DNA of 64,000 nt from Parelaphostrongylus tenuis (Eukaryota; Nematoda; Chromadorea; Rhabditida; Metastrongylidae): assembly GCA_019055375.1 (NCBI GenBank), contig JAHQIW010005325.1:1-64000 (forward strand), in the 5' to 3' direction. Below the pieces are notes generated by a model. It saw only the letters and a program-made list of their open reading frames with translations, was not told the origin of the DNA and did no database searches. This document shows, piece by piece, positions 16,049-48,789 of the stretch (its first letter is position 1; each line of letters starts with the position of its first letter). Made by a program: the position numbers and the translations under genes.

Positions 16049-16130
16049 GGTAATACTCTTCGAAACGATAGAAACAATTTATCCTCATAACATATTTTGA
16101 GCCCATGAGGTCTGATATGGCACTTATACA

Positions 16131-16173
16131 GTGCTAGACACGTGTTTCGCCATTTCAGCCTTATCAGTAGCAC
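16131..16173 (-). ncRNA. Hammerhead ribozyme motif (type I), core substitution
   Basis: On the minus strand stem I is GTGCTA/TAGCAC (six perfect pairs). GAAAC, an ACGT loop and the GUC triplet are present. The conserved stretch reads CTGATAA instead of CTGATGA, so G8 is changed to A. G8 takes part in catalysis in this family, so the copy is probably inactive. It is the inverted partner of the copy at 16281. Confidence 0.65.
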
Positions 16174-16280
16174 GATACCTTCCGGTGTAGCCATATCCAT
16201 TGCAAGTGAGTATATCCCCGACATTTAAAGGAATCGACGTCGAATTATTTGGATCTACCGTACGTAAGGTGAAGGCCCCC

Positions 16281-16323
16281 GTGCTACTGATGAGGCTGTA
16301 AAGGTGAAACACGTGTCTAGCAC
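16281..16323 (+). ncRNA. Hammerhead ribozyme motif (type I), weak stem II
   Basis: Order seen: stem I strand GTGCTA, core CTGATGA (16287-16293), stem II region, GAAA (16306-16309), two-pair stem III closed by ACGT, GUC with cleavage expected after 16317, and TAGCAC pairing with the first strand. Stem II (GGCTGTAAAGGT) has a G-U, a mismatch and a C-G, so folding is weakened. All core bases other than the C before GAAA match the family. Confidence 0.7.
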
Positions 16324-16469
16324 TGTATAAGCACCATGAGAGACCTCACGAAAGGCTCAAGTTGTCAGATTATATCGTTCTTGAGTTAAGTCTCAAAATA
16401 GTCTATTTTGTTGGTTGCTATCAGATTTATATACTGTTTTGAGCCAGGTCTACTAAACAGTTGATTGTG

Positions 16470-16745
16470 AAAGTATGATTCATTCTACCAGCCTAGGCGG
16501 TCGACTGTTGGCCACTGCAATGTCAAGGGATTTTATCACCTGACATGCGGTGATTTACAATAATTCGGCGTCGATTCCAACATATATAGGGGGTATGTCC
16601 GTTGCAAGGGATGGGCTGGACCGACAGGCGACGTGTTGCTGATGAGGTTGTAATGCCGAAACACGTGTCTAGCACTGTAAAGGTGCCATAACAGACCTCA
16701 TAAAGGCTCAAGATATGTTAGCAGTTATATATTGTTTTGAGTGAG
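16470..16745 (+). repeat. M4-related element, right half
   Basis: This segment repeats the right arm of the 16100-16360 element: hammerhead, then a tail with CATAACAGACCTCATAAAGG and GGCTCAAG. The left inverted arm is not evident. It contains the best-preserved M4 ribozyme copy at 16633-16675. Confidence 0.6.
16633..16675 (+). ncRNA. Hammerhead ribozyme (type I), core intact
   Basis: GTGTTG (16633-16638) is followed by CTGATGA (16639-16645). Stem II is GGT/GCC with a six-base loop, then comes GAAA (16658-16661), stem III AC/GT with ACGT loop, and GUC ending at 16669. TAGCAC pairs with GTGTTG using two G-U wobbles. Compared with the copy at 16281 (GTGCTA/TAGCAC), two stem I positions change but pairing is kept. 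All catalytic-core bases known for the family are present. Cleavage is predicted after C16669. Confidence 0.82.
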
Positions 16746-16914
16746 GTGTGTAAAGACAATCGAATGTAAAGATCTCTCCTATATTCTATAGGGTCCCATC
16801 TCCTGGAGCACACCTTACCGATGAAAATTATGTAGCGTGCAGTATCAATTTTGTCTAACTATTCATCATATGTCTAAGGATAGTTAGTGATGTGCAATAG
16901 TTTCGACTTCACGC

Positions 16915-17010
16915 AGGTGTCGAAACCGCGTTTCATCCATACCAAGAACGCGCGCTATCCGCTGCATCACAGAGGCCACCGCTCTGCTCCCACAGTCTCT
17001 TCATAGTTTC
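16915..17010 (-). repeat. S2 tRNA-like repeat, degenerate
   Basis: The minus strand has a tRNA-like layout with an A-box-like segment (GCAGCGGATAGCGCG) and a B-box-like AACGCGGTTTCGACA. It matches other S2 copies loosely. Confidence 0.4.
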
Positions 17011-17243
17011 ACAACTCATTGCTTCCTAATTTCCAACCCTAGGACTCCATGTTGTATAAATAGAGAGGATATCAAAACCACAAGGCAAACATCATTACAT
17101 CCCTTATAGAACTTATTAAATTCCATTGATTACCAAGAGCGGGATGATTGTATAGTAGACAAATGTTCTTTCTTCTCAGATAAGTAACGTTTATGCTCCA
17201 AAACATGGAGAAATAGATAGGAGAGCATGGAGCACAAATAGAA

Positions 17244-17691
17244 TCAAACCTTCCTGCACGCTGCAATTTCAACGGCCGTCCCCAAGAGGTTCACTGTGGT
17301 GGTTTCGTTTACGGAGAGATAATCATTACCAGCTCCATCCTTATAGCAGTTCCCTTCGGCTTCATGAACAATCTTCCCGTGTAGAACAGTTTTTGTGAAA
17401 TGGTGAGTGTCACATGATTTTCTTCGATCAGGCCTGATGTAACATCGAAGGACAAGTTAAAGGTTAAATACCGACATTTTCCTGCACGTTCTTCATGCAC
17501 ACCGTGTGCGGACCACAACACTTGTATTCGATTCCTCTTCCACTGCCACCAGTCTTACCATCCACGAAGGTTCTCCTGTGTTTGCGTGTTGGTTCCGATT
17601 CTGCTTGAGCATTTCTCCATCCGTATGAATGTCGCTGAATACTGATCAACTCTATTCTACCTCGTGTCCTTTGATAGCCGGGCTTGGACAT
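17244..17691 (-). CDS. Putative small cysteine-containing protein or its relic, unrecognised
   Basis: On the minus strand an ATG at 17691 opens a 75-codon frame rich in charged residues, with a Cys cluster near its end (EYKCCGPHTVC). After a possible 40-base intron (gtattt ... catcag) a second frame, in a different phase, runs to TGA at 17244-17246. That frame contains two cysteines and reads GKIVHEAEGNCYKDGAGN and TTTVNLLGTAVEIAACRKV. Both parts look coding in composition, but the join leaves one base in excess, and no clear signal peptide follows the ATG. A run-length error, a missed exon or a decayed gene are all possible. No family recognised. Confidence 0.3.
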
Positions 17692-17715
17692 TTCTACATA
17701 ATTGCAGGGAGTAAA

Positions 17716-18306
17716 CTATTAGGCCGTTCCATATGTTTTGGCACTAGAGCAATAAACACTGAAATTATTAACCAGAAGTAATTAAAATGAGACGATTTTG
17801 GTATCGTTGAGATGCGCATTTTCTTGTGAATATTTTGATGTACCAATTGTCTATACTTGCTAAGAGAAGGAGCTGTCTTGTGAACAAATTCGCTTGCTAG
17901 TCATGCAGGAGTGGCGCGTAAGAGGTAAATTCTAATGAAGCAGCTAGCAGGGCTAATAGAGTACCCGTGGACGGTCCGAGCTCAGCTAATCCTCCAGACT
18001 GTTCGCTCTAGCTTTATTTTCGCGAACCACTTCTTAGCCGTCCGTTCTGCAACCGTACCATAGCCCCAAGCTCCAATAATCTTGCGTACCGCTACACTAG
18101 CATTTCCCCCTTCGAGCCATTCGTACGTGAGTAGCAAGCGAATTTGTTCTCACGACAGCTCCATCTTCAGGGAAGTATAGGCAAGTGGTATACCAAAATG
18201 TCTGCAAGAAGATGCACAAGTGAACGATACTAAAATCATGCAATTTTTACTTCTGGTTAATAAATTTGGTGATTACCGATCTAATACAAAAATTATGAGA
18301 ATACTT
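17716..18306. mobile_element. Palindromic mariner relic (inverted arms, transposase N-terminus)
   Basis: The left end (TTCCATATGTTTTGGCACTA) and the right end, read on the minus strand (TTCTCATAATTTTTGTATTA), are inverted copies. They continue as arms of about 190 bases. On the minus strand, about 18165-17960 encodes a mariner-type helix-turn-helix N-terminus (EQIRLLLTYEWLEGGNAS, then VRKIIGAWGYGTVAERTAKK). It has a stop after the first four residues and further frame breaks. There is no catalytic domain. The ends resemble those of the mariner relic at 62779-63456. Confidence 0.75.
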
Positions 18307-18674
18307 AGCATTTTGAGATATGTATGACGCGAATTTCCTAATTATGGAGGGATGAGAGAGTTCCCGGGAGGAACTTGAACCAGCACAAGACTTATGACGA
18401 TCGCCATCACTACCGCGCTACCTGATTCATGGCCAAAAAGTAAAGTATTTGTTGACAAATATTGCTCGTATTCTGGCTCTGTTACATACGATTGACGTCA
18501 GTGGTCAAAACGCTTTTTTATGTTTTCGCATTGCGAGAAAGGGATAAGAGCCCATATATTGATGGTCAACAAAAATTGCATTCAAAAGATCGACTGTTTT
18601 TGAAACCCCCAAAAAAACATTCAATATAATTCCAAAAAAGAATGATTTAAGCTCAAAAAGGGGTTGGTACGCCA

Positions 18675-18722
18675 GGGTCATACACCGGTGTTTCGGAGGT
18701 TCGTCCTCCTCATCAGTGACCC
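18675..18722 (-). ncRNA. Hammerhead ribozyme (type I), core intact, minus-strand copy
   Basis: The minus strand reads GGGTCA, CTGATGA, stem II GGAGG/CCTCC with ACGAA loop, GAAA, stem III of three pairs closed by CCGG, GUA, then TGACCC pairing fully with GGGTCA. It is the inverted partner of the copy at 19040. Cleavage is predicted after the A at minus-strand position 18681. Confidence 0.88.
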
Positions 18723-19039
18723 CGCCCCACATTTAGCCCTGCATTGAATCAAGGAGGGAGGTGTATGTGGTGATGGCACAGTGTACTCATGACACTGTAC
18801 CATCACCACCTCTCAGTCGATAGATTTTTGCTGTTAGATCAAAACTAATTCAAAAGATCGACTGTTTTTGAAACCCCTCCAAAAAAATCCAATATAATCC
18901 CAAAAAAGAATGATTAGTTTTGATCTAACAGCAAAAATCTATCGACTGAGAGGTGGTGATGGTACAGTGTCATAGTACACTGTGCCATCACCACATACGC
19001 CTCCCTCCTTGCTTCAATGCAGGGCTGAATGTGGGGCGG

Positions 19040-19087
19040 GGGTCACTGATGAGGAGGACGAACCTCCGAAACACCGGTGTATGACCC
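19040..19087 (+). ncRNA. Hammerhead ribozyme (type I), core intact,  strongest copy
   Basis: Stem I GGGTCA (19040-19045) pairs with TGACCC (19082-19087), six Watson-Crick pairs. The core CTGATGA is at 19046-19052. Stem II is GGAGG/CCTCC, five pairs with loop ACGAA (19058-19062). GAAA is at 19068-19071. Stem III is ACA/TGT closed by CCGG, and the cleavage triplet is GUA with H17 at 19081. Nothing in the core departs from the family consensus. The short stem III is typical of hammerheads found in metazoan repeats. Confidence 0.9.
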
Positions 19088-19195
19088 TGGCGTACCAACC
19101 CCTTTTTGAGCTTAAATCATTCTTTTTTTGAAAAATTGCATTGTTGATTCACAGTTGGTAATCATTCCCAATATATGCAGGAACCACCGTTCCGT

Positions 19196-19460
19196 GAACG
19201 AATCTGCCGCAGTGGTTAGAGAAGCCCTCCCACACACACTTGGTCGATGGTTCGATCCCACATCCAACTCCCACCAAGCTTTCCGTCCCTTCGGAATGAC
19301 AAATTGATAGTAAACTTGTCTGGGAGGATAGAGGATGGACTTGATAGGTTGGCAGGCTACCGCCAGTCAATGTAAGAGCCAAATATGAATTCAATCACCT
19401 CTAACGATTTTGAACCGAACGCATGGCGCATCTCTGAGGGATTGATCATCGCCGAGAGTG
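19196..19460 (+). repeat. S1 tRNA-headed SINE-like repeat
   Basis: The head has an A-box-like CGCAGTGGTTAGAG and a B-box GGTTCGATCCC. It is followed by the S1 body (ACTTGTCTGGGAGGATAG) and the S1 tail (ATGGCGCATCTCTGAGGGAT and CGCCGAGAG). Diverged copy. Confidence 0.7.
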
Positions 19461-19727
19461 CTATAATTTATTATAACATCGTCTACAAGTACGTGTTCGC
19501 AGTCTGATTCTTAGTGTCAAGAGCGAAATGACTTCTTCACGAGGTTATCAACGCTTTTGTTTTCTGGATGGTTACGCTATCACCTTCTACTATCAGTTAA
19601 ACTTAGAATTTTACTTAGTAGATGTTGACATAAAAAATCACGAAACCTTTAATTTATCAAACATGGACAAACTTAAGACAAGATTATCCATAGTGGATAG
19701 TCTTCCGAGAACAAGAATCGCAATATT

Positions 19728-20808
19728 CTACAGTTTTAGCAACATGGGTGCCACTAATTCTTTGGATTTCTCAGCTCCGACAAGAAGTTCAACGAGTTTA
19801 AGCGCAAACTCAAAGGCTGTACCAGGTCCACGACTGGTCACTATACGATCTGCAACCACTACTCGGTCTTCGCTGTACTTATATCCTAAACAACCGGAAT
19901 CGGGTTGTAGATAATAATCAAAATTTGATCTGAAAAGACAGCTAATCTGAGACAGTTAGCTGATCAGCTTAAACAGTAACAAAAGCCATATAATGGTGCC
20001 AATTGTCTCCCTTCTATCAGTGACTTACTTACCTCCTTCTTCGAGTTGCTTACGTACGGACGGATGACTTGTGACCATGGTTGCCGGAATTCCATGTGAT
20101 TTTAATGCGATTGGTGCAGCACAAATTGCTGCTACATATTTGCTAGCGTTATGATGAGCCTTTAGAACTTGTCCAACATCACTACTCTATAAATTAACAA
20201 AATGGAAGAAAGAACTATTGAGCAAAATATAATAATAAGCTACAACTATGCATTCAAAAATGCTGAGTGATATGCGAAACTTTGAACCTCGGGCGGAAAA
20301 TGAACCCAATTCATATCCTCTCCGGAGCGCGTGCTATCCGCTGAACTACCGATGATCCTGCTTTACTATCACTCTTTATTGATACAACGTATCGGAACTG
20401 TCAGCAACAAACCGTCAAACACTAAGGTGGTAAAATTTCGAGAGCTTAGTAAAGTAAGAAGTAAGATTTAAGTAAGAAGGGAGGCCCACCGCTGCTAATG
20501 TATTGCTTCCCGGTTGTCCACCAGGAAGGATAACAACGCTGAATGTCTTCGAAAGTACATCCTTCAATGCACAGTCGGGTGTGATTACTGTTTTTCTCGA
20601 ACATTTTACTGGATTCGACCCAGTTAGACCAGCCACAGTAACCTATAATGCCACAAATCCCATCAACTGGGATTGCTAATATACCGTTTACAATCAAGAA
20701 AGGAAAGAGTAAAGTCTTTACGTCAACTCCTCCTCTTCTCAGAACATCAATCGTAATCACTGCTTCCATTTCTTCGGCGCCATCAGCAAGTATCACAAGT
20801 GCAGACAT
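19728..20808 (-). CDS. djr-1.1: DJ-1/PARK7 family protein deglycase-like
   Basis: Four exons on the minus strand: 20722-20808, 20490-20642, 20033-20186, 19728-19885. The phases agree and give 183 residues, close to human DJ-1 (189). The start is [17 protein letters not shown]. The catalytic Glu is in GAEEME, the nucleophile Cys in the VAAICAAP elbow, and the His in TSHPSV. The C-terminus has [18 protein letters not shown]-1 proteins protect against glyoxal and oxidative stress and sit in cytosol and mitochondria (family knowledge). The start ATG lies two bases after a TTCAG acceptor, as expected for a trans-spliced mRNA. An AATAAA of the upstream gene mrpl-41 lies about 120 bases before, which fits a downstream operon gene. 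Confidence 0.95.
20268..20390 (-). repeat. S2 tRNA-like repeat in djr-1 intron 2
   Basis: The minus strand has an A-box-like region GTAGTTCAGCGGATAGCACG and a weak B-box (GGGTTCATTTTCCG). The S2 flank TTTCGCATATCAC is recognisable. Confidence 0.5.
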
Positions 20809-21002: not shown

Positions 21003-24000
21003 CTATGACTCCACTTCCGTAGTTTTCGTCACAGGGCCATATTTTCCTTGCTGAAACGGGGAGATAGAGGAGAAACACTAGTTAAATGTCTGGTTGAACA
21101 AAGCGATTGCGCATGAGATTTGTTAGAACAACGCTCACCTTAAAAGCTTCTCGGATCTGCCCTCCATAGCAAAGCTCAAACAACGTCTCTGCATCCATTT
21201 TTGGTGGAGGCCAACGTTCATCTTCAAGAGTATATAAATCTGCTAAGGCCTGAGACCCTTTCTCTTTGACCTTAATTCACAAAACCACATAATTCTTCCT
21301 TGAAAAGAAGCAAATGCGCCAAATAGCTACTTGAAACAAAGAAAATCACAAACTCAGAAAATTAATACCAATTGTAAATTAAAGTTCCAATACAAAATTT
21401 TACTAATACTCAATAGTAAAGAATAATTATCACCTTAGCAGCGTAAGCTCGTCTTCTCTTCTCAATTTCTACATCAGTTCGAAACGATACATACGGCTTT
21501 AGCCTGAAGTTTTTTTTTTAACTTATTTTCTAAGGAAGAAAGTATTCAACCATGACATTCACGTAAAGAAACCTACTTAAAGCCGTCTAAATTTGGTACA
21601 ACGAGACATGATTGCATTTCGGGAACTACCACGTATTTCCCAGTGACAGGATCAACGTATCCTTCGTCTTGTACACCAGTATACCTGAAACAAACTCAAC
21701 CCACAAGTTCTCAGGGAGACTATGGATTACATCTATTTTATCACACAAGACCCGTACTCACATCGAAATGCGTATCTGAGCACTTCTTGCGCTCAATTCC
21801 TTTCCTCGTATTCAGCCTTTACAAAGGCCTTAAAATTCTTGACTTCTTGTTTCGCCTGCTGACTGAGGATTTTATACTCTTCGGGAATGCCGTAGAGTAC
21901 GAGTCACCGTAGAGTACGAGTCAGGTTGATTGCTCTTGCAATTTTAAAAACAGTTGAATTAAGGCGTTTCCATCCCACGTGAACAAGTTTAGAGAAAGGC
22001 AAACTAAGACGTTCTCAAGTGAATCGCAGGGGAGCATGTGGACTAAGGTGCTGGACCTGGCTCGTCGCTCCTTGATAGACACTATACGAAAACTTGACTA
22101 GTTAAGAAGCCCGACTGGTTGAACATGAAAGAGCAAAAGCAGCATTTAACTGCTTGCGTCCCAAGAAGAAACTACTAACCAACTGATGGATTCACAAATA
22201 CTTTGTCCTATTCATACGCCATAATTTCCTGATACATAGAAGCACGCCACGTGATGAAAAGAGATGACGACAGGTGGACGACAAAGTGAAAAGAGTGGAT
22301 TCCAAGAGGAGACAATGTCCCCACTTAGTTGACCACGTAAGATGAAGATGTGACTTATGAACCACAGAAAAAGCATGTAGAGGTCATCACCCAGGAAGCA
22401 GAGAACATTCAATCGACAATGATAGCGAGATAAGAGAGCAATCTGAAACTGTCCTGCAGATTTTCTAAAGACAAGTCATCAAGATATAAGTAACAACGAA
22501 TACACCTGCTCAGTAAGGTTTTTCAGCACATTTTTTCGTCAATCCAAGCTCTCCGAACAGGCAATGTTAAAATTTTAGTACAAACAAAGTTGGAGTATAT
22601 AGTGAATAATAAAATTTCCAACACTCCTTATTTTCTCATTAAGCCAACATGACGTTTAATTTTGTGCTTGATGTGATTGAAATCTCAATCTCGTGATTTT
22701 TCTTCAACGAGTAACGGAGGTGTTTGGCTGATCGGGTTGTGGACAACCTCGTCTTTCTAGGCTCTGAAGAAAGTGAATTACTGAAACAACAGCTTTTTAA
22801 GCAAACTGTGTTATAAAGCCTTATGCTTGGCTGAGAAGAAAACTGGGAATTACTACAGCATGCCAAGGTTAACACATAGTCGGTCTTGGGAATTTCCAAC
22901 ATTCTCAAAACGATATTATAATTTGCTGCGAGCACAATTTAATTGCTTCGATGAACTTCTTTCATCTTAAATTAGTTCCAACAACGTAGCTCTCTAATTC
23001 AACGCTGTGGCTACAGTCGCAGAGGAGTGGAGGCAGACGGCTCATCCCTACCAGCTAAACACGCAGATTTGGGTCCGTGGAAGTCGAAAGGTTGCATAAC
23101 ACTCGACTTGTTTATTGAAATAGTTCTCGATATGCATTCGCTTCACTAATGCAAAACTACCTAAACCGACAAACTTTGTAATGTCGCCGTCTGTCTATGA
23201 TGAATTGTATCACCAGTAGCTGACTCATTCTCACGGTAGTAATGCTCGACATGCCTCACCTATTTAATTCCTTCGGATTCTCTTTGTGCCACTTTGGCGA
23301 TAACTCCGGAAACTCACGATTCTGTCCAGGCCACTTGTGCTTCTCATAGTTGAATGGACCAATTTTTCTCTGACCATATGCTCCTGCAAAACGCCATGGC
23401 ATTAACATGTTCAATGGAAAATCCACTTGAAGGTGCAACTTAAATTTCATAGCTGTAGAAAACCACGAAAAGTTGTGTGACATGGAGAACGCCCAAGAAC
23501 CCGCGTTCCACCCGATCCGAAGACGCGTACTACCACTGCATCACCTAGGCCACCGCTCTACTAGTAACACTCCGTTACTCGATTCCTTGCCTTGAACGCG
23601 GTATGGGTGAAACGCAGGTTCATCACCCGTATAGGGTCGAAAATTTTGCATATCACTCGGCATTCTTGGGTATGTAATTACAGCATCATGACACTGCTAT
23701 AAGAGTAGTAAAATAAAGAGCTCTTTTGAGTAGATTACATAGAAGCTCTGCAGATAGTTACAAAAAATCAACTTTTGCTCGGCACTCATATGTAAGACGG
23801 CGACAAATCTATGAACTGATCCCATTCGCTGCATAGGAAAATTTCATTGGAGTGTTAGTAATCATTCGAAAACTTGAATTTCTGGATAGAATCCTACATG
23901 ATCGGTTCTTCAAAACACCCTTTTATAGCGCTGTAGAACCCAAAGTAAAATTATGGCGCACAAGACCACGTGCGTTTTTCTTCTCGCTTATATTTCGCTG

Positions 24001-25572: not shown

Positions 25573-28500
25573 CTACAGACCGGCTTGTCCTTTCACTTTC
25601 AAAACGTATTTGTAGTAGGCGGCATTCATTTGCTCGAGGAAAATGAATGTGATGACAGTGTGTGGTCCGATACGCATGTAATATGGTGTAAATCCTTTCC
25701 ACAAAGCGAATACGCCCTCATTCTTCATGATCTTCAATGATTGTCTTCACTTATAAGCATGGAAAAATGAAAGAACACAAAGAAATCAAAGATAGAGACA
25801 GACTATTTGCAAGTAAAATTTAACCCTTTGAGGACGGCATGTATTCATCCAGATGCGTGATTATCTGGAGGCCTTTTTCGCTGAAAAAAAAGCGCTTCAC
25901 CTTTACTTTTAGTGCTCATTCGATAGCCTGAAAAACGGTGATTTCATTAATGCACTTAGGTTCCCAAATAGGCTCCCTTGCGCGATATAGCACCTGAGAG
26001 TGGAACACGTTTCACTTTCGATGCGCGTTTTTAGCTCAACTCTCGTCCGTGCCTGGCTTTCCTTCAAAAACGGCATGAGCGTCATATATGCACCAGAACC
26101 ATAAAGCCCTTCAGAGCATCCGGAAGTACTCAAAAGGTACAATGAATCTGGATTTTTCTCTTAAGGCAGGAGAAAACTTTAACTAAATGACGAAAATCGC
26201 ACTGCGCGTAGCGATGAACTGCCGTTCCCAAAGGATTAATGCGACAACAACGGCTCGGCGATAGTTTACCTTCATCCATACATCGAAAGCGTTCTTGTAC
26301 TCTGGCTTACCATCGATCACCTTCATCGACTGAATTCTGAAAGAAAAAGGCTCTTAAGAATTACCTAGCCTTTTCGTGTAGTGTACACTACATTCGTTTA
26401 AAGTAATACTCAACAGGATTCTATCATAGATATCATCGAAGATACCCTAATCTCGATCGTTTATGAAGACCTCACTCAAAACAATGATAATCCGATTAAA
26501 TGATAACATGACTGAGCCGGTAACAAGGTCTGATGAGAGCATTCATACAATGCTAGACAGGCGCCCATACTTATTGTTGCTTTAGACGTTTCTGGTACTC
26601 ATACCCAATATATAGCTTGCTAGGCTCTAAACGTGCGGGCTGGGTACTCATGAGTAGAATGTCAGTCTCTCTCGGAGGAACGGGAAGAGCGTAACTGCTG
26701 GAGGCGACTCCTAACCGCCTCCCATGTACTTCTCAGCCTCTTGACTGCAGGCTTTTGGCCGACTTAAAGAAACAAAGTTTTCTAAAGTTGGGCTCATCAT
26801 AATAAATCGAAGGTTTTGCCAGAGCGGAGTTGCTGTTGTTCCTAAGTTCTACACAGGATCAGACCATCACCATTTTCGTGCAATGTTCCGTTTTTTCGCG
26901 GAAAGGAGAGAAAGTCTCTAAATTCAGACACCGAAGTTCCACAACTACTATAAACTGGATCTATTCAAATCATTGGTCGGCTCTTGGAAGATATCGTTGT
27001 CGACAACATCGACGAAGAATACGACCGGGTCGTTAAATATTTTCACATTAGCGCTATAAAAGCTGAGAGCCCTAAAGTCAGGAAGAGACGTTTGTTCCCA
27101 CAAACTCTTGAGCTGATACGTCAACGTGGAATCGCACGAGGTACAGGCAACAGAATCTTCGCGTCCGAATTTGCGAAACGCTGCAGCGAAACGATAAGAG
27201 AAGACCTGAAAGAGAGAAGAGCAGCAGCTGTGGCAGAAGCTGCAGAACCTGAGAAGAGCATTCGCAAAGCCCAACGAAGCTTCGCCAAAAATAAGACCAA
27301 GATGATTGCACTCCGACGCCCTGACAGGGTACTCACACCTTCTAAAAGGGCAATGGAGTTGATCATCCACCATTACTACTCGGATCTCTTCGCTAGCCAT
27401 GTCCTCTTACCGTCATTTAAATTGATAGAGGATGAATTTGTCGTTTCACTGGTCCTCCCTTCCGAAATTCGACAAGCTATGTCGTCGGTGAAAAACAGAA
27501 CAACACCCGTCCAGACAGGATTAGACCAAAACACCTGAAGAACCTACCGCCAGTTCTCATCAACACCCTGGCTCGGCTCTTCACTCGCTACCTGTCAGAA
27601 TGCGAGGTCCCTATTCAATGGAAAACCAGCAAGACCGTAATGTTGTTCAAAAGGGAGACCTTCACGACATAGGCAAATATCGCCCAATCTGCTTGCTGTC
27701 CGTTGTCTGTGAACTCTTTACTCGAGCACACTGGACGGCGGACAGCCATACGAACAAGCAGGTTCCGAAAAGATTCAGTATCATAGACAATATCCACACG
27801 ATAAAAAGACTAATTGAAGTTTCACGAGTGTACAAACTACCGCTCTGTCTCATTTCCATCGATTTGAAGAAAGCCTTTCATTCAGTGGAAACTATCTAGG
27901 TCATGAAATCAACAAGATGAACGATCTAGCTCCACAGTTGAGCAGAAGGAAAGGAGCGGCTTGAGGAACGTTCAAGAGTATCGAGTTACAGTGAACAGGA
28001 CAAAGAACATCCGACTCCGTGCCCAACTTTTCCGATTCGACGATTACCCCAGCCCTAACGTGTGCAGCAGAAACTTGGTCGCTACGTAAGCAGATAAGAT
28101 CACTTGCCGTTATCGAACGCGCAGTCGAAGGTCGATGCTAGGAGTATCCCGTATCTCGCAAATGAGAGAAAGGATCCACAGTTCCGAGCTCCGTCAACGA
28201 TCGATGATCACAGACGCGTCTACACGCCAGGATATCGAAAATAAAGTGGGCCGAACACGTGATGCGCTTCAAAAACAGCCGATGGACGAGAGCCGTTACC
28301 GACTGGACTCCTCGGGACACTAAGCGCTCCACAGGAAGACCACCGACTCAATAGCCCGACTTCTTCACAAAGAGCATAGAAGAAAGATTTGATGCTCAGC
28401 GAATACCTAAAGCTAGGAGGACCCCTGGGCTACTCTTGCACGCGATAGGGAAAAATGGAAGTGTTGCTGGTATCCGCTCGAGTCACTCAACGATCAACGG

Positions 28501-31500
28501 GACGGCAGGTGATGCAGGTGATACAGACAGGCGCCTGTTTCGTCCTTCTGGACTCCCAGTAGCTCAGTTTCCCTCGATTCAACCGATCCCCTGGGGATAT
28601 ACTTTAATTAGAGGAATCGACGTCTCAGTAAATCATCGCAAGTCAGACGATAAAATCCCCCAGGATATAAGGCTATATCCTCAGGGTATCGATAAATCAA
28701 GGGAGACTGTGCTACTGAAGGGACCCATCAGACTGTCGCTAATGAAATCACGAAGTCGAAACAGCACCGGGTTCAGTAGAGCACTGGTCTCCCTATTTGT
28801 GAAAAGCATTCCTCTGCACTTATCCACAGATGGTAAAAATTGTACAAATTGTATGCAGGCGTAGGTTCAGAAAAACTATGTTAGATATTTACCTAGTCTT
28901 CGCAATATCGACAGGCATAGATGCAATCGTAGTGGCTAGTCCTGACACCATGGAAGCCAAGAAGTGACAAGGAATACCTGGAAGTACTTAGCAAATTAGT
29001 CACGGAAATTCTTTCTAATTAACCGCTTATAGCGGTGGTATAAACTTTCAAGTATACACTTTGGAGTAGTGTGATGTGCAAAACTTCTGCGCCAGGTGGG
29101 ACTCAAACCCACATCTCACTCTAATCCAGGAGCGCGTGCTCTAACCCGTTGCACCACTAACGCCCATTTTGCACACCACTCTTTCTACGCTACGACACAT
29201 CTATCTGTCAGCCGGTAAGCGCCAACGGCCTGGCACGGGTAGTCGGTATCGACATTGAACCCAATCATGCTGACAGATATTGGGTATTGATGATCAATTT
29301 AAATTCGTATCATATAACGTGCCAACCATAGACCGCGAGTGTGGCATAGGGAACCTCTAACCACTGCGTTAAACACATTTTGATATCATCCAAAAAAAAA
29401 CTCATCAAAAAGGTATCATATGATTATCACCATCTTGGACATATCCTGTTCCTAAGATCATTTGCTTTGCCTGTGAATATGTTGATAACTGTGATGCGTT
29501 CACAACCACTCCACGCATCACTGTCGGCCCACAACCCTGAAAAATCAACATACGCTGAGTAGAGTTTTCAAAATGAATTATCGTATTGCAACATACCCTC
29601 CATAAGGTGAAGAAACCTTCCTCCCTTATAACACGAATCAGCGCATCAAATACATTCTTATAATTTCGCCGCTGCTCTGGAGGAAGACGACCATCGCCTG
29701 AACACGGAGTACTCTGCACATGAAAACTGAACCGTTGGTTCATTGTTTCGTCAAAAGTTACAATAAAATCAAACTACTGTAGACCACACGAAAATAAAGA
29801 GAATTATAACAACTTAACATAACAATCACAAAACCCAATAGATCCTTTCATTACGATTTGAGCCAACATGTCATGTGGTCTGGTAAGGGCTCTTGTACAG
29901 CCCGATACACGTGTTTCGTCCTTACAGAACAATAATGAAAGGATCTACTGAAATGAGCGTGGTCTAAACAAAGCACTTGAGATAAAGTTATAATTATGAT
30001 AAAAGTGCCAGCCAAAGACCAATCGAGTGCGCAACACTCTGTGTTAGGTGGAAAATACCACTTGACGTAGAGTGTAAAACGTTCGTCTTTGATGACTCTC
30101 TATAAGGAGTGTAAAGCTCCCGAGAGAACTGACTATAGAAAGATCGAAAGACGACAGGTTCTGCCCGGCTGACGAGTCTGTAAGGACGAAACACGTGTAT
30201 CGGGCTGTACAAGAGCCCTTACCAGACCACATGACAAGATGGCTCAAATAATAATGAAAGGATCCATTGAAATTTGAGCGTGGTCTAAACAAAGCACTCG
30301 AAATAAAGGTATAACCACAAAACTGCTGCCAACGAGATAGTTCTTTTCTCAAATCGCAAGCTTTGTGCAACACACATATTTGATATTAGCACTTTGACTG
30401 TGAAAAATGAATGTCTTTAGTTTTTTTAACCTTTCAAACGACTGTTTTCAGACCCAGCTCAAAAGTTCAATTCAGTATTAGTGAATATTTCAGGCCTTTC
30501 CGAGATTTGTATGGTATGCCAATGGCTGGCTTACGTTTGGATGTTCTCGCTCGCCTCGTCAGAGCCACATGCCTTACGCACTACGGCTCAGCACTACTAA
30601 AAGCAGCAATGGCCGCAGATGTAACAGCTTAAACAAAGTGAAAAACCACTTGATGTTGCGATCTAGGCCGATTTTCAGTCACTTAAGCAGTTGTTGCGAA
30701 CCATGTAACATCACCTTCTAGTCGCCTATATTTTGAACCTTGCTTGAATTCAATATGGTCAGAGTAAATGTTCTGAGCCTTTCCGCGATTGGTATGGCAT
30801 GCCAGTGGCTGACGTACGTTTCGGCAATTTTCAAGCATGATTCAAAAATAGTCGATATAAGAGCAGCGTAGACCATCGATTGAATATCAGCCTAAACCGC
30901 AATATCAAGTGATTTTTCATCTTTTTTTAAGCGAAAACGCTGCTTTTAGTAGGGCTGAGCCTAGGACATGTGGCTCTGATATGGCGAGCGGGAACAACGA
31001 AACGTACGCCAGAACTGGTATGTCACACCAACTTCGGAGAGGCTTGAAACATTCACTTTGACTACGTTTCGTTTCTTCCTTTTGAAAGAGAACGAGAGAT
31101 CAGATAATAAATGAACAACTGAAAGACTTATAAAGAACAAAGCGGCTCTAAAGAAAATGTTGGCGAGACGGCAGTCAGTTTTTATAGAAAAACTTGTCGA
31201 TAACAACCTCGTATTTGCTCATTCAAGAAAAAAATCAGTAAAGTAAGAGAAAGAAAATAGTAGACACTATAGATAACAGGAGGAGAACATTTTCGTCGAC
31301 CTCGCGTATGCTTATTCATTCAAGAAATTGTTAAAGGACAAAGCGATTATTGATAATGAAGTCCTCATGCCGCACTGTGGGTTCGACTTTACTGACCATC
31401 ATCAACATTGAAGGTTAAAGCTCTGAGCGTTGATCACTTCCTGAAGGATGAGATGAGCATTCCACTTCATCAGGCGTCATTAGAGGTCGGAATGCATATG

Positions 31501-41780: not shown

Positions 41781-42449
41781 AAGTGGACATTGAAATACAC
41801 ATATGATACTTGTAATTGCACAAGTGTAATGACGGTAATCACAGTTACTCACAGAACGACTAACACGAAATGAAATCAAACAGGAAAGGCGACATGCCGA
41901 AACGATAGCAAAACTGGTTAACGCAACTTAACACGTTGAGATCCTCCTCGTCGCGCCGCCGCGCCGGCGCCGCCACGTACGCGGCGGCAGCGATGACGTT
42001 GGGTAGTTTTCTAATGAAATATGGATATTTATCGTTACTAGAGGAAATTTCGTCCGCAGTAAATGATCAAATATGAAAGAAGAGACATCCATGAGACTCC
42101 TTGTGGTAGGAACAATAGCAATATTTCCTCCTAAAGCTTCGAATCTTGAGGGAAAAGGCAGATATGTAGTATAAGATGATCTCTCAAATGTTGCTTAACA
42201 TCGTTATCTTATCCTATATATATATTCATTCATATTTTGATCATATTCATCGCTTATCGACTACATCAACAACCACTCATCTTCATACAAAACCACGAAT
42301 GAATTTCAGATGAAGGAAAAGGAAATGATGAATGAGCATAAAAGTTCTTATGCGCCTGAGAACAAGTGACGACTCATGGCACTAATAGCACTAAATCCTG
42401 TACCCTACGTATTCCTTTTCACTTGACTTCTCTCCAGACAATTTTTTGT

Positions 42450-43330
42450 GCCTCCTCCAGTTTCCATTTCCGCGATTCACCTCAACAAGCTCATGCAGTT
42501 GATTACGAAGTTCATCAACACATGAGGGATATGGGCCACCGCTTCCTTTCGGATGGAAAGACACAGATCAATTACGAAGTGAAGATTTTCTTGGGCTTGT
42601 GCCTCAATATGACCACTACACGATGGCCAAGGCTCTACGATTACTGGAGCGATAGCCCGCATCTTGCGGGAGTCTCCATAGCGTCGCATCTTTTGTCGAG
42701 GGATCGCTTCTTCGAGATCATGACCCACTTGCATGTAAGCAACAATATAGGTCACGATGTGAATGACAAGTTATACAATTAGGACCAATGCTGGACTTGT
42801 CAATAAGAATTGTAAGGACCCGTTCAAACCATGGCGATACGTGTGTATCGAGGAGTCAATGGTGTCATTCAGAGGACGAATCAAATTCCGCCTGAATGCA
42901 CCTTGCAAAGAATCGGATATGGAATGAAGCGATTCAAACTTTGTGGTGAAGGCGGGTACACCTACAAAACGATGGTGTACATCTTCAGGCGCAAACCCAC
43001 ATCGAACGAGCCACTTGCAGATTTTGTGGCCAAGGATCTAATGAAGGATCTTCTGATTGAAAGAAGGCACCTCTTCGCCGTTGACTGGTACTCCAGCGTC
43101 GCTCTCGATGAGAGTCTGCTGCAGAGCAATACATACTTTATCGGAACATGCAGAAAGAGCAGGAAAGGCTTGCCTACGGAGGTCACGGAAGGAAAACTGC
43201 GCAAGGGCGAGGCGAGTGGAAAGCCATGTAGAATCAAAATGGCTTAGGTTCCGCGTTCTGGCGAGCTTCACAGTGCTTTCGACAGCTCACGGCACTAGCC
43301 AAAAATCCCTGCGCGTGCAAGTTTGAAGTC
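42450..43330 (+). pseudogene. piggyBac transposase remnant (DDE_Tnp_1_7 type)
   Basis: In order: EVKIFLGLCLNMTTTRWPRL, YDYWSDSP, LLSRDRFFEIMTHLHVSNN, a broken stretch with the conserved IEESMVSFRGRIKFR in another frame near 42850, LCGEGGYTYKT, LLQSNTYFIGTCRKSRKGLP and, after further shifts, VLSTAHGT. These are standard landmarks of piggyBac transposases. At least three frame changes and one stop (42780). N-terminal part and Cys-rich C-terminal finger not seen. Confidence 0.85.
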
Positions 43331-43842: not shown

Positions 43843-44060
43843 CACGGCCTCAGGCGGGAATCGAACCAAGGTTTCATCCTATCCGGGGACGCGTGCTCTA
43901 ACTACTACACCACCGAGGCACATTTGCCCGGACAATGTTATGAATGGTCGAGCATATGTGCCTCGGTGGTGTAGTGGTTAGAGCACGCGTCCCCGGATAG
44001 GATGAAACCTTGCTTCGATTCCCGCCTGAGGCCGTGTTTTTGCTCACCACTCAATTCTCT
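43843..44060. repeat. Inverted pair of S2 tRNA-like repeats
   Basis: Minus copy 43843-43925 and plus copy 43957-44060 are almost identical over 100 bases, including the flank TTTTTGCTCACCACTCAATT. Each has A-box region GTGTAGTGGTTAGAGCACG and B-box TTCGATTCCCG. The plus copy has a CCTC/GAGG acceptor-like pair and a CGTCC/GGATG anticodon-like stem with loop CCGGATA. The T-arm is poorly paired, so a functional tRNA is unlikely. Confidence 0.75.
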
Positions 44061-44772: not shown

Positions 44773-45522
44773 GGCTGAGCAAAAAGTGTTGGGAGATTCT
44801 TGATGGTTCCATTTGTGGACATATCCTGCATTGTTTCTTTATTGATAGCTTTGCATATATCTATCTAGTTCATTAATTCAGCTAAATTCCTGTTAACAGT
44901 ATAATTTGCTTGCGTTGATCCGCTATTATTGGAGAAAACACTTAACATTCTTAAGCCGTTGACAAGATTATTGAGAGTGACGATTCTGGTACGACGACAA
45001 ATTCGACTAGGAGGCTGATGGTTCAAGCGATTCAAGGAAGGCAGTTCTGACCTCGAAGACATGCCTCGTTCTGGCCGGCCGGCTAGCCATCTGTTTTGGA
45101 AGAAAGTGACTTGTAAGTCGCTTGAGATGCTGAGCCTTCATCAATCACTCGTAGTTTGGCTGAAGAGCTTGAGCTATTGCAGCGGACCGTTATCAACAAG
45201 TCATACCAACTTAACTAAGTCCACAGGAAGCCTCGCCAGGATCCGCATGAGCCTTGTCCGATTATGGTTTCTTCGATCAATGCAACACTTTCTATGGTCG
45301 TCGATCTAAATCACTTAATAAAGTTGAAGAAGTATGTCAAGAGTTTTCCGATTCAAAAAAGCCTGAATGGACTTTGGATAGATCCGATATCATGCATAAC
45401 GACTGCAGAAAGTTGTGGAAAATGGTGGTCTATACTTTGAAGAATATTCATTGTCGTTTTTGGGGTTAATTTGCGCATAAAAGCGGAATTTCAAAGATTT
45501 CCCAGAACTTTTTGCTTAACCC
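44773..45522 (+). mobile_element. mariner relic with internal deletion
   Basis: Ends GGCTGAGCAAAAAGTGTTGG and, inverted, GGGTTAAGCAAAAAGTTCTG are flanked by TA (44771-44772 and 45523-45524). The interior has FKRFKEGSSDLEDMPRSGRP near 45020-45080, LAEELELLQRTVINKSYQL, and then jumps to the C-terminal end (GGLYFEEYSLSFLGL-like near 45430-45470). The catalytic region is lost and several frames are needed. About 750 bases compared with about 1.3 kb for full elements. Confidence 0.85.
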
Positions 45523-45524
45523 TA

Positions 45525-46404
45525 GTAGAATGGATTGGGAGGGAGATGAGATACGGAAAGCGCAAAAATGAAGAAGAGATAAAAGGAAACTGCGCCAAAC
45601 TCTGGTATGAAAACGATGCAATACCATGATGGTGAAGAAGTTTACATCGAGTGAGGGGATAAAACAGGCGCGATCAACTTAAGCATCCTCAGATTAGAGA
45701 AAGCATCCCCAAACACACACGAGCCATCTCTGTATTTAAAGCTTACTTTTTGTTCTAGAGTAAACAACCTTAATCACTGCTATATGACGTTTCACTCACA
45801 AAATGAACTTAGAAATAGTGAAGCAAACAAGTTAAACCCTTCCCGCCTCCTTCAAAGCTCTCGGGTGCGAAGCACACTGGAAGACTAACAACTGGAAAAA
45901 AGCGTCAGTTCAACAACCTGATTTAAATCCCAAGACCGACTATCGATTTATCCCTGCATTGTTGGAAGAGATCAGTAGTTTTTTCTGCCGAGAAGCTCCG
46001 AGGTGTTAATAATATTTTTGAACATTAGTGATGCAATACAACGATACAACGTAGTAGTGCAGCATATATAATACAATTATCGTGCAGTGGCTTAGGTTTC
46101 AACTTGTCTCGCCTTCTTCAGAGCCTGGAGAGGTCAAATTGATCCTAAAATCATTCATTCAAAACATCCATAAACTCAGCAGAAGACGTAAGAAACGATT
46201 TTTTGATGGCATAGTAAAAAACTTTATCCAAAAACTCTCACCGCTTAGATGTTTCTGGTCTCTCAAATGCAATCCAAAATTTGTTACTTACGTTTTCTGC
46301 TGAGGCTATGGAGGCTTCTGACTGAATGATTTACAAATCATTTTGACCTTCCCAAGCTCTGTAGAAGGCGGGCCTTGTCGAAATGTAAGTCACCACGATT
46401 CTTG
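45525..46404. other. Intergenic, nothing recognised
   Basis: AT-rich sequence without recognised repeats or coding motifs; the frame 46082-46303 has no family features. Confidence 0.4.
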
Positions 46405-46470
46405 TATTATGGATCCTTTCATTATTATTTGAGCCAACTTGTCATGTGATCTGGTAAGGGCTCTTGTACA

Positions 46471-46513
46471 GCCCGATATGCGTGTTTCGTCCTTACAGAC
46501 TCGTCAGTCAGGC
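46471..46513 (-). ncRNA. Hammerhead ribozyme motif, one stem III change
   Basis: The minus strand reads GCCTGA, CTGACGA, stem II GTC/GAC with loop TGTAAG, GAAAC, loop, A-T-A, TCGGGC. Stem I pairs at all six positions; compared with the 30163 copy, the C-G and G-U positions have become U-G and A-U. The G that closes stem III is A here, leaving a single closing pair. Confidence 0.65.
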
Positions 46514-46785
46514 AGAACCTGTCGTCTTTCGATATTTTCATAAGTTGGCTCAAATAATAATGAAAGGATCTATTGGAAATTGAGCGTGGTCTTATAAAAG
46601 CACTCGAAATAAAGGTATATTATGATAGAAATACCAGCCAAAGAGCAATCGAGTGCGCAACACTCTGTGTTAAGTGAAAATTTCACTTGACATAGAGTGT
46701 AAAACGTTCGTCTTCTACAACTCACTGTAAGGGAGCAGAGCTCCCGAGAGAACTGACTATAAAATATGGAAAGACGACGGGTTCT

Positions 46786-46828
46786 GCCAGACTGACGAGT
46801 CTGTAAGGTCGAAACACGTATATCGAGC
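46786..46828 (+). ncRNA. Hammerhead ribozyme motif, degenerate
   Basis: Core CTGACGA (46792-46798) and GAAAC are present. Stem II has a central mismatch, stem III carries the same G-to-A change as its partner, and stem I pairs at four of six positions (GCCAGA/TCGAGC). Confidence 0.55.
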
Positions 46829-47284
46829 TGTACAAGAGCCCTTACCAGACTGTTTTGATGTACTGCATCACTAATAATATTCAATAAATACTATTATTAG
46901 CACCTCGGAACTGCTAGACAATAAAATTAGACTATCGACCTGGTATACCTCATTTGACCTAACAGGAACTTCATACTAGAAACTACACAAAGAACTGGAT
47001 GAGACCTAAACAAGGCGTGTATGAAATAGAACAGACATTAGAGTGTAATAGGTGGAACTGGATCGAAGGGCAACAAAAGGACCTCCCGACACTTGCCACT
47101 ATTAAGAGAGACAAGTCGAGAGATGAATCGGTTCACTTTACCAGCGAAAAACACTGAAGTTATTTGATGAGGGGTGGGGATATGAACCACTTGCGGAGCA
47201 CATGACATTCCAAGTACTAACGACCTCTCGAACACTTGTCCTTAGGCCGGAGTCGATCGATGAATGCGAGGGAGTGCTAACAAA

Positions 47285-47400
47285 GCGGTGCCCTCGATGG
47301 TGCAGTAGTAGGAACGCGCATCTCGGTACAGTGGAATGTGTGTTCAACTCCGTTCCGAGATCGAGTGTTTTGCATATCACTCAGCATCCTTGGGTATATA
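47285..47400 (+). repeat. S2 tRNA-like repeat
   Basis: A-box region GGTGCAGTAGTAGGAACGCG, B-box-like GTGTTCAACTCCG, S2 flank GTGTTTTGCATATCACTC. An S1 tail fragment (GAATGCATGGTGCATCACTC) follows at about 47453-47515. Confidence 0.6.
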
Positions 47401-47813
47401 AATATGACATCACAACACGAGAGTGTGCGGTGAAAGAATAAATCTTGGAGGTTGAATGCATGGTGCATCACTCAGGGATCGATCAACGCCAAACGCTTTA
47501 TCCATTACGCTTTTTCCTCTGAACCGATTCATTTCTTTCCCATTGATCACCGCATCACCGATCGAGCGTGTGCAAAACGTGCGTAGGCTCAAATGACAGA
47601 ACTGCTGAGAAGACATATCCTCCTGTTCGGAACCATCTGGACATCGCAACCAAAGTAGTTGAAGAAGTCGTCCTCACTGTCTATGCTGATGCAGTGATTA
47701 TCCCGTATCTACCATTCGTTCCATCAAATTTACTCAAGACCACGCTCAGGTTTCAACATGCCTGATAATTATTTTTGAGCCATGCATGTGGTCTGTTATA
47801 GGCACTTCCACAT

Positions 47814-47857
47814 TGCAAAACACGTGTTTCGGCCTTGCAGCCTCATGAATTGCACAG
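47814..47857 (-). ncRNA. Hammerhead ribozyme motif, damaged core
   Basis: Stem II is perfect (GGC/GCC, loop TGCAAG), GAAAC, ACGT loop and GUU triplet are present. Stem I pairs at five of six positions. The core reads TTCATGA instead of CTGATGA, so it is not expected to cleave. Confidence 0.55.
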
Positions 47858-48114
47858 TGCCCTTTGTCTGAGCCAATCACTCTTAGGAGGAACCCAAACT
47901 CCTCACACAGAGGAGACACATACGTACTATTTACACGTGCCATCAAGTGAAAGAAATCACTAAATGAGCAGTGTTGTATAGTCGACTGCTTTTGGCTAGT
48001 ATTTACGAAATATCATACCATTGGTTTCCAGTGTCTTCTTAAGACCACGGTCAATTTTCCATATGCCTGACAATTACTTTTGAGCATGCAGTGGTCTAGT
48101 ATAGGCACTTCACA

Positions 48115-48156
48115 GTGCAATACACGGTTTCGGCCTGGCAGCCTCTTCAGGCGTAC
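48115..48156 (-). ncRNA. Hammerhead ribozyme, core intact (N7 = A)
   Basis: The minus strand reads CTGAAGA, stem II GGC/GCC with further pairing inside, GAAAC, three-base loop CGT, GUA. Stem I GTACGC/TTGCAC pairs at four of six positions, so it may be weak. Position 7 is free in the family consensus, so A is allowed. Confidence 0.65.
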
Positions 48157-48339
48157 GCTGCCTATTCGTCTGAGTCATCGTTTTTAGGAAGAAGACCCTC
48201 TCGAGGAGACGCAGACCTACTATTTACACAAGTCGTCATGTGATTGAAATCATCGAGCGGGCATGTTCTGCGCTCGACTGCACTTGGCTGGTGATTGTGG
48301 GTTCTGCTCCAAAAGAGATTGGCTCAGACGAAAATCACC

Positions 48340-48382
48340 GTACAACTGACGAGTCTACAAAGCCGAAACACTAGTATAGTGC
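48340..48382 (+). ncRNA. Hammerhead ribozyme, core intact, imperfect stem II
   Basis: GTACAA, CTGACGA (48346-48352), stem II with one mismatch, GAAA (48365-48368), AC/GT with loop ACTA, GUA, TAGTGC. Stem I pairs at five of six positions. Confidence 0.65.
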
Positions 48383-48789
48383 TGCTGGATAGGTGCCCAT
48401 AACAGACCACATGCATGGCTCAAAAATAGTTATTAGGCATATCCCATCTCTCACCATTCATCTAGGTCTCCGATGACGAAATTCCGTAGGTGATGCGCAT
48501 GTTGCTCTCATCATCCGCAGCTTCACACGGTGTGATGCTATCACTTCTATAGAAAGTTCTTCTTCCTTTTGAGAGAGATTGGCAAACGAACAGATACGTT
48601 GATGGATTTCATTGGGTCATGGAGTTCCATGCTGCCCTTTTTCAGTCCATATTCAGCCACGCACTCATTATTTACGTGCCAATTGTAGTAGCAGAATGAA
48701 TCAGTCATATTTCCCAGCGATATTATCGACAATCATAGATCCTCAGAATCATAGTAGATTCAAATTGAAGCAAGGTACTTGTCCATTAT

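What the first reader, a model, noticed from the sequence alone, without database searches (positions are those of the whole stretch)
16100..48445. Hammerhead ribozymes inside the terminal inverted repeats of several MITE-like families
Seen directly: at least eleven sites have, in order, a stem I strand, CUGANGA, stem II, GAAAC, a tiny stem III, GUC/GUA/GUU, and the complementary stem I strand. Four families that otherwise differ (M1 at 18.6 kb, M2 at 29.8 and 46.4 kb, M3 at 47.8 kb, M4 at 16.1 kb) all carry it at the same place, with the 3' side facing the element end. M2-M4 also share the tail CAGACC(A/T)CA...GGCTCAA. Six copies keep all core bases. Known: type I hammerheads with very short stem III occur in some metazoan retroelements. 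Inference: this is a family of ribozyme-bearing palindromic elements in a nematode, in which cleavage could define RNA ends or circles. I do not know whether it has been catalogued.
Basis: partly seen in the sequence, partly recalled or inferred. Interest (0 to 1): 0.95.

Follow-up and report, generated by a model that had tools for sequence, protein, structure and literature searches.

The report
Ribozyme retroelements with Penelope-type ends
A roundworm genome holds many tiny mobile elements that carry a self-cutting hammerhead ribozyme, and their ends look as if they are pasted into DNA by the machinery of a larger mobile element (Penelope), which could answer who moves such elements in animals.

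Summary
The hammerhead motifs are real: nine sites inside the five elements match CTGANGA...GAAAC, and stem I covaries across families (native pairing best of 40,320 permutations). No window copy passes Rfam's cut-off; 20 of 31 listed genome matches do. The "terminal inverted repeats" are not MITE ends. Mapped onto circular units (F5 284 nt, M2 320 nt), two-segment copies are pieces of the unit joined head-to-head: 58 of 58 minus-then-plus, with variable junctions and runs up to 5.2 units. One outer end lies at site A, the other at site B about 45-50 nt further (30 of 32 F5, 25 of 26 M2). Target duplications of 8 bp or more flank 15 of 22 young F5 (mode 12 bp) and 16 of 34 M2 insertions. A Penelope-like element (uninterrupted 892-aa RT + GIY-YIG) in the same genome has the same geometry; three of three copies examined agree, two with short A-side evidence. 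Best reading: nematode retrozymes mobilised in trans by Penelope, primed on both target strands from a template continuous across the ribozyme cut, probably circular RNA. RNA cleavage and circles are untested.

The parts
18583..19130 (.). M1 insertion: minus segment 18583-18912 (starts at site B, 330 nt of a 268-nt unit) joined head-to-head to plus segment 18913-19130 (ends at site A)
18571..18582 (.). Target site duplication of M1, left copy AAAAATTGCATT
19131..19142 (.). Target site duplication of M1, right copy
18675..18722 (-). M1 hammerhead ribozyme, minus copy
19040..19087 (+). M1 hammerhead ribozyme, plus copy; predicted cleavage after 19081
29835..30315 (.). M2a insertion: minus segment from site A (unit position 70), plus segment ending at site B (115)
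29827..29834 (.). Target site duplication of M2a, left copy CACAAAAC
30316..30323 (.). Target site duplication of M2a, right copy
30163..30205 (+). M2a hammerhead ribozyme, predicted cleavage after 30199
   Evidence: (30.4 bits)
29900..29928 (-). M2a cut-off inverted hammerhead (lacks CTGANGA)
46409..46850 (.). M2b insertion, head-to-head; right end short of A and B, no target duplication found
46471..46513 (-). M2b hammerhead, minus copy
46786..46828 (+). M2b hammerhead, plus copy
47711..48440 (.). M3 insertion (bounds by eye): two tandem minus units then one plus copy; target duplication unclear
48115..48156 (-). M3 hammerhead, minus copy
48340..48382 (+). M3 hammerhead, plus copy
47813..47854 (-). 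M3 degenerate hammerhead (core changed)
   Evidence: by eye
16079..16780 (.). M4 insertion (bounds by eye): minus segment then two plus units; no target duplication found
16131..16173 (-). M4 hammerhead with a core change
16281..16323 (+). M4 hammerhead, first plus copy
16633..16675 (+). M4 hammerhead, second plus copy
22656..22894 (+). Penelope pLTR fragment (72% to the resident element; hammerhead-like core at 22764)
46109..46171 (-). Penelope pLTR fragment, minus arm of a head-to-head pair
46308..46370 (+). Penelope pLTR fragment, plus arm; M2b lies just downstream

Best explanation
M1-M4, and the family F5 elsewhere in the genome, are nematode non-LTR retrozymes: non-coding retroelements with one type I hammerhead per unit of 268-352 nt (M3 and M4 lengths from repeat spacing). 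The hammerhead (probably as a dimer through its palindromic stem III) cuts transcripts into units that are ligated into circles (inferred). The protein of a co-resident Penelope-like element (RT + GIY-YIG) binds this RNA at a stem-loop just 3' of the ribozyme cut (inferred) and makes a staggered break, often of 12 bp (duplication shown, enzyme inferred). It then primes reverse transcription from both target strands, one strand starting at site A in the stem-loop and the other at site B about 45-50 nt further 3' (end positions shown, priming inferred). The RT runs round the template for a fraction of a lap up to 5.2 laps, and the two cDNAs meet head-to-head at a variable junction. That junction, not a pair of TIRs, makes the palindrome. 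The stated confidence is for retrozymes inserted by Penelope-type two-strand priming; I hold the circle step itself at about 0.6.
For: (1) 58 of 58 two-segment copies (segments at most 45 nt apart) are minus-then-plus, none plus-then-minus; one further copy is minus-plus-minus. (2) Outer ends fall at A and B, one each, in 30 of 32 F5 and 25 of 26 M2 copies, permutation p 5e-5 for each, the floor for 20,000 shuffles. (3) Target duplications of 8 bp or more in 15 of 22 young F5 and 16 of 34 M2 insertions, against 0.3% and 1% for mismatched flanks; 9 of the 15 are exactly 12 bp. (4) Segments cross the ribozyme cut site 194 times, while 7 of 150 segment 5' ends fall within 5 nt of it (5.5 expected); runs reach 5.24 units (the insertion L016 = L061 is counted in two sets, without it 190 crossings in 149 segments). 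(5) The resident Penelope element L091 has an uninterrupted 892-aa ORF with RVT_1 and GIY-YIG, head-to-head segments, a direct pLTR repeat, ends 46 nt apart (67 and 113 nt from its own predicted minimal hammerhead cut) and a 12-bp duplication. Two more copies show one B end and, opposite, an end at or near A, with 12- and 13-bp duplications. (6) Neighbouring GIY-YIG hits under 6 kb apart: 20 minus-plus, 0 plus-minus, 1 minus-minus, 1 plus-plus. (7) Published Penelope features match: inverted pLTR head-to-head, a tail on one end only, 8-10-bp duplications (PMC3846280, passages); cleavage and extension of both strands from two adjacent RT start sites that bound the tail (PMC11167929, passages). 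(8) In F5, M2, M1 and the Penelope leader, A lies in the terminal part of a predicted stem-loop and B downstream of it. (9) Arms of one copy resemble each other more than arms of different copies in M2 (0.939 vs 0.917) and older F5 (0.944 vs 0.910).
Against: No RNA data: cleavage and circles are not shown. Penelope and retrozyme leaders have no overall similarity (best ungapped match reached by 916 of 1000 shuffles for F5 and 604 for M2). Only two short ordered words, GCT(C/T)AAA and (A/G)CA(G/C)TCG(A/G), recur; they were picked after looking, and the pair tested appears in 24 of 100,000 mono-shuffled Penelope leaders. The A ends of the second and third Penelope copies rest on a 14-nt match (C416) and on a by-eye match in a diverged copy with an 11-nt BLAST match (C240). 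Young F5 copies show no excess of within-copy arm similarity (0.9787 vs 0.9777), and conversion between arms could also raise it in the older sets. Uncleaved multimeric transcripts would also cross the cut site. Six F5 and four M2 two-ended copies fall outside tight A/B ranges (counted by hand). 7 of 22 young F5 and 18 of 34 M2 insertions lack an 8-bp duplication; older F5 were not tested for duplications. One-strand young F5 copies all end near A (8 of 8) but 6 of 7 one-strand M2 copies end near B, which I cannot explain beyond a bias of the M2 query.
Confidence: 0.84

Rival explanations
1. MITE-like DNA transposons with the hammerhead inside true terminal inverted repeats, moved by a transposase.
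For: Long inverted arms and several short non-coding families.
Against: Unequal ends (A versus B), variable inner junction, one-strand tandem copies of up to 3.4 units, runs up to 5.2 units, duplications most often 12 bp in young copies, no fixed terminus. I did not look for a transposase with these ends.
Confidence: 0.03
2. Same Penelope-type insertion, but the template is an uncleaved tandem transcript rather than a circle, so the ribozyme is not needed for insertion. (Shares most of the best explanation; the odds overlap with it.)
For: PMC11167929 (passage) reports that unprocessed RNA is the main substrate for the Anolis element in vitro; long tandem arrays exist here (L016, L069, L070).
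Against: The ribozyme is kept with covarying stem I across families; laps on one strand of a copy are alike in M2 and older F5 (0.948, 0.954). Neither excludes it.
Confidence: 0.3
3. Self-priming or twin priming by an unrelated LINE (a non-LTR RT fragment is present in the window) makes the head-to-head copies.
For: An RVT_1 fragment lies at 27525-27899; twin priming is known for LINE-1 (recalled).
Against: LINE inversions are a minority of copies and start at the RNA 3' end (recalled); here the head-to-head form is common, with two internal start sites, as in the resident Penelope element.
Confidence: 0.06
4. Assembly artefacts (false inverted duplications).
For: Some insertions are near-duplicates that look like uncollapsed haplotypes or copied stretches (L036/L037, L071/L089, L003/L004).
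Against: Target duplications outside the arms, A/B ends and variable junctions at dozens of loci are not what misassembly produces.
Confidence: 0.02

Closest known systems
Metazoan non-LTR retrozymes (Cervera and de la Pena 2020, PMC7229834; parts 1-2 of 6 and passages read)
   Same: Short (about 170-400 nt) non-coding units with a type I hammerhead, tandem copies, GC below 50% (0.43-0.44 here), target duplications longer than 4 bp, predicted self-paired circles, Penelope elements in the same genome
   Different: Here two-segment copies are head-to-head with one A and one B end; the main text of that paper has no 'inverted' and no 'nematode', and PMC7761336 says no motif points to the mobilising element (passage)
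Penelope-like elements (PMC3846280, PMC11167929, passages; Cervera 2014 and Lunse 2017 seen only as references)
   Same: Inverted and direct pLTR copies head-to-head, tail on one end only, two adjacent RT start sites, minimal hammerhead in the pLTR
   Different: The elements of the finding carry no protein, have units of 268-352 nt and a longer stem III; tail here about 45-50 nt, against 30-40 nt reported
Schistosome SMalpha / W-elements (PMC8490949, passages)
   Same: Helminth repeats with type I hammerheads and signs of mobility
   Different: Flatworm satellites; the passages seen describe no head-to-head A/B ends
MITEs / foldback DNA transposons
   Same: Short, non-coding, palindromic
   Different: No fixed termini here; retro-insertion features

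Membership tests
Hammerhead ribozyme type I | Conserved core CUGANGA, GAAA and NUH with stems I-III, open at stem I | tested here: met
   genome matches over Rfam cut-off
Hammerhead ribozyme type I | Score over Rfam gathering cut-off for the window's own copies | tested here: not met
   best 30.4 against 34 bits; 20 of 31 listed matches elsewhere in the genome pass
Hammerhead ribozyme type I | Compensatory change in stem I | tested here: met
   only 1 of 40,320 permutations reaches the native pair total; 8 of the 14 typed rows used, chosen as distinct types, Penelope included
Hammerhead ribozyme type I | Self-cleavage | not testable with these tools
   needs in vitro transcription
Metazoan non-LTR retrozyme | Short non-coding tandem unit with one type I hammerhead per unit | tested here: met
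Metazoan non-LTR retrozyme | Target duplication longer than 4 bp, when present | tested here: met
   8 bp or more in 15 of 22 young F5 and 16 of 34 M2; older F5 not tested
Metazoan non-LTR retrozyme | Circular RNA in tissue | not testable with these tools
   no transcriptome available
Penelope-like element (the resident L091) | RT plus GIY-YIG in one ORF | tested here: met
Penelope-like element (the resident L091) | Direct plus inverted pLTR with tail on one end and target duplication | tested here: met
   two further copies with short A-side matches
Penelope-like element (M1-M4 themselves) | Encodes an RT | tested here: not met
   units of 268-352 nt; tblastn of the Penelope protein against the window: best E 0.91
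MITE / TIR DNA transposon | Fixed inverted termini that are the same in all copies | tested here: not met
   ends unequal, junction variable

The most novel reading that the evidence does not exclude
Animal hammerhead retrozymes are satellites of Penelope elements. A (probably dimeric) Penelope complex integrates them by symmetric two-strand priming on one circular RNA, with the two strands using the two RT start sites A and B exclusively, so a new copy is typically born as a head-to-head palindrome.
Probability: 0.6. Interest if true: 0.82.

Novelty: new variant of a known kind. Interest (0 to 1): 0.74.

Why it matters
The retrozyme authors state that metazoan retrozymes show no motif from which their mobilising retrotransposon could be deduced (PMC7761336, passage). 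This genome gives such a signature at dozens of loci and supplies a candidate partner with an open frame, so the question becomes testable. It also adds a constraint on the poorly understood Penelope mechanism: one strand at each of two start sites, whereas the Anolis work saw no strand difference in RT start in vitro. Palindromic insertions of this kind can pass for MITEs or microRNA precursors; several Rfam miRNA families give sub-threshold matches to long hairpins in 15900-49000, including the M1 palindrome.

Tried and rejected
MITE reading: rejected (see rivals). Rfam at gathering threshold found no hammerhead in the window; the high-scoring miRNA matches at M1 and at 46112-46368 reflect hairpins and are below their gathering scores. 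A first hammerhead finder with a lazy stem III missed most canonical copies and was replaced; that finder requires stem pairing, so its 166 hits against 0 in reversed sequence are no independent proof of pairing; one search is meant as that, with strands typed by hand and 6 of 14 rows (repeats of a type) left out of the permutation. Private-variant tracking in young F5 was too thin and its de-duplication kept only 8 copies; replaced, positive for M2 and older F5, negative for young F5. Overall similarity between Penelope and retrozyme leaders: negative. The end-site query for Penelope copies returned 40 nearly full-length matches of 41 and says little about ends. Copy numbers of M1, M3 and M4, and a spliced-leader check for Nematoda, were not obtained because the genome search was busy. 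M2b, M3 and M4 target duplications are absent or unclear.

Selection and counts: searches score only the best candidates (74 of 119,811; 40 of 4336; 40 of 2490; 150 of 1723), and at most 30 loci each were cut out, so copy numbers are lower bounds and the samples are the best matches. The M2 query itself contained the head-to-head form; the F5 query was a direct unit. Insertions cut by a locus edge or under 100 nt were dropped. L036/L037 and L071/L089 look like two haplotypes of one insertion; without them the A/B counts are 24 of 25 and 29 of 31. L016 and L061 are one insertion that stands in two sets; L003 and L004 look like one stretch copied in mirror image. The A/B counts use one cut between A and B (68 for F5, 90 for M2), which places odd ends (167, 42, 38, 14 and others) in a class; within tight ranges (F5 A 33-58, B 79-110; M2 A 63-78, B 104-125) I count by hand 26 of 32 and 22 of 26. 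The pair counts of GIY-YIG hits use coordinates typed for the contigs with more than one hit.


Full report
Check of the observation. The hammerhead core is strongly enriched in the window: 13 pattern matches against a shuffled mean of 1.19 and maximum of 5. Stem I, defined by its distance from the core and the predicted cut, forms 43 of 48 pairs in eight window copies; across eight distinct types (the Penelope one included) the native partners give the best total of 40,320 permutations. Rfam does not pass any window copy (best 30.4 bits at 30163-30205) but passes 20 of 31 listed matches in the same 481.5-Mb genome. Stem III is usually a short palindrome (CACGTG, CACCGGTG, UAGGCGCCUA), the sort of ribozyme reported to cut better as a dimer (PMC7761336, passages; Lunse 2017, title seen only in a reference list).

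What the palindromes are. A tandem array in locus L016 gave the unit of a canonical family, F5: 284-285 nt from cut site to cut site. A tandem array in L051 gave the 320-nt unit of M2. Mapped onto these circular units, copies fall into one strand or two strands in the order minus, plus: 26 M2, 14 young F5 and 18 older F5 copies are minus-plus, none is plus-minus, one is minus-plus-minus, and 28 segments stand as one-strand entries (7 M2, 8 young F5, 15 older F5, less L016/L061 and pairs split by a gap over 45 nt). The junction between strands lies at many places in the unit, and a segment can exceed one unit (32 of 62 M2, 26 of 36 young F5, 15 of 52 older F5; longest 5.24 units). A MITE with fixed terminal inverted repeats does not give this. 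M1 in the window follows the same plan: minus segment 18583-18912, plus segment 18913-19130, flanked by AAAAATTGCATT.

The ends. Both outer ends are 3' ends in the sense of the ribozyme strand. They fall at two places: A (median 42 in F5, 69 in M2, counted from the cut) and B (94 and 115.5). One end is at A and the other at B in 30 of 32 F5 and 25 of 26 M2 two-ended copies; shuffling the ends reaches this with p = 5e-5, the floor of the test. M1 has A at 49 and B at 98. Target duplications of at least 8 bp flank 15 of 22 young F5 insertions (nine of them exactly 12 bp) and 16 of 34 M2 insertions; mismatched flanks give 0.3% and 1%. By RNA folding, A lies in the terminal part of a predicted stem-loop 3' of the cut in F5, M2, M1 and the Penelope leader, with B downstream of it. 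The circular units fold more stably than dinucleotide shuffles (z -3.8, -4.7, -4.8 for F5, M2, M1).

The partner. A GIY-YIG search of the genome listed 150 hits, all over cut-off (1723 candidates), many in long uninterrupted frames. One stretch, L091, holds a Penelope-like element with an 892-aa ORF (RVT_1 and GIY-YIG). Its closest named relatives are strongylid nematode proteins, e.g. Necator americanus at 59% identity; an unnamed one reaches 73%. L091 is itself head-to-head: minus 99-2257, plus 2260-5349. It carries a 105-nt direct pLTR repeat, a minimal hammerhead (CTGAAGA...GAAACGTC), left end at A (67 nt from the predicted cut), right end at B (113 nt) and a 12-bp duplication. Two more copies, C416 and C240, have a clear B end on one side, an end at or near A on the other (by 14 nt in C416, by eye in the diverged C240), and duplications of 12 and 13 bp. 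Neighbouring GIY-YIG hits are minus-plus in 20 pairs, plus-minus in none. The order of landmarks after the cut is the same in Penelope, M2, M1 and F5: GCT(C/T)AAA at 39, 43, 29, 17; A at 67, 69, 49, 42; (A/G)CA(G/C)TCG(A/G) at 89, 95, 84, 75; B at 113, 115.5, 98, 94. The two words were chosen after inspection, and beyond them the leaders are not similar.

Mechanism. Shown: two-strand head-to-head structure, A/B rule, target duplications, and templates continuous across the cut site (194 crossings; 7 of 150 segment 5' ends within 5 nt of it, 5.5 expected, with one insertion counted twice). Supported: arms of one insertion come from related templates (M2 0.939 within vs 0.917 between; older F5 0.944 vs 0.910), though young F5 shows no difference. 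Inferred: ribozyme cutting, ligation to circles, and the Penelope protein as the enzyme. The inference rests on the shared end signature and on published Penelope behaviour: head-to-head inverted pLTR with a tail on one end and 8-10-bp duplications (PMC3846280, passages); cutting and extension of both strands and two adjacent RT start sites that bound the tail (PMC11167929, passages). The near-exclusive use of one site per strand is new relative to that in vitro work, which saw no strand difference; a dimer with one RT at each site would explain it. An uncleaved multimeric transcript as template remains possible.

Novelty. The 2020 retrozyme paper (parts 1-2 of 6 and passages) and the review (passages) propose Penelope elements as likely mobilisers, and the review states that no motif points to one. 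In the rows listed by my library searches (12-25 rows each, titles and abstract starts) I saw no paper describing head-to-head retrozyme insertions, A/B ends, or nematode retrozymes. Subscription papers are mostly not held, among them Cervera 2014. The class is known; the Penelope-type end signature on it, and its reading as trans-mobilisation, is a new variant that bears on a stated open question.

Noticed in passing
window 46109-46370 with 46409-46850: M2b lies within or beside a head-to-head Penelope pLTR pair, so a retrozyme seems to have landed in a copy of its presumed partner type.
   Followed up: partly
window 22656-22894 (+): Penelope pLTR fragment with a hammerhead-like core at 22764, ending close to site B of the resident element.
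   Followed up: partly
L061-L090 and L031-L060: One-strand young F5 entries end near A (8 of 8), one-strand M2 entries mostly near B (6 of 7). The M2 query ended at B, which may bias this; otherwise unexplained.
   Followed up: no
window 13270-13333 (-): Short F5-like fragment, 83% over 64 nt.
   Followed up: no
window 43846-44033, 56350-56632: tRNA-like matches that also come as minus-then-plus pairs (43846-/43960+, 56350-/56565+); perhaps tRNA-derived elements inserted the same way.
   Followed up: no
window 26954-27899: Broken non-LTR reverse transcriptase (RVT_1 match in 27525-27899).
   Followed up: no
window 42360-43247: Two pieces of a DDE_Tnp_1_7 transposase.
   Followed up: no
window 52247-52401: Distant M1-like copy (about 70% identity).
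   Followed up: no
L069, L070/L074 (G000:C407, C149): F5 insertions with up to five tandem units on one arm, about 98% identical to the unit: large and probably recent palindromic arrays.
   Followed up: partly
window 34900-35052 and 43889-43990: Other long hairpins that match Rfam microRNA models below their gathering scores.
   Followed up: no
L091 2260: The plus segment of this Penelope copy starts about 9 nt after its predicted hammerhead cut; one case, not tested further.
   Followed up: no
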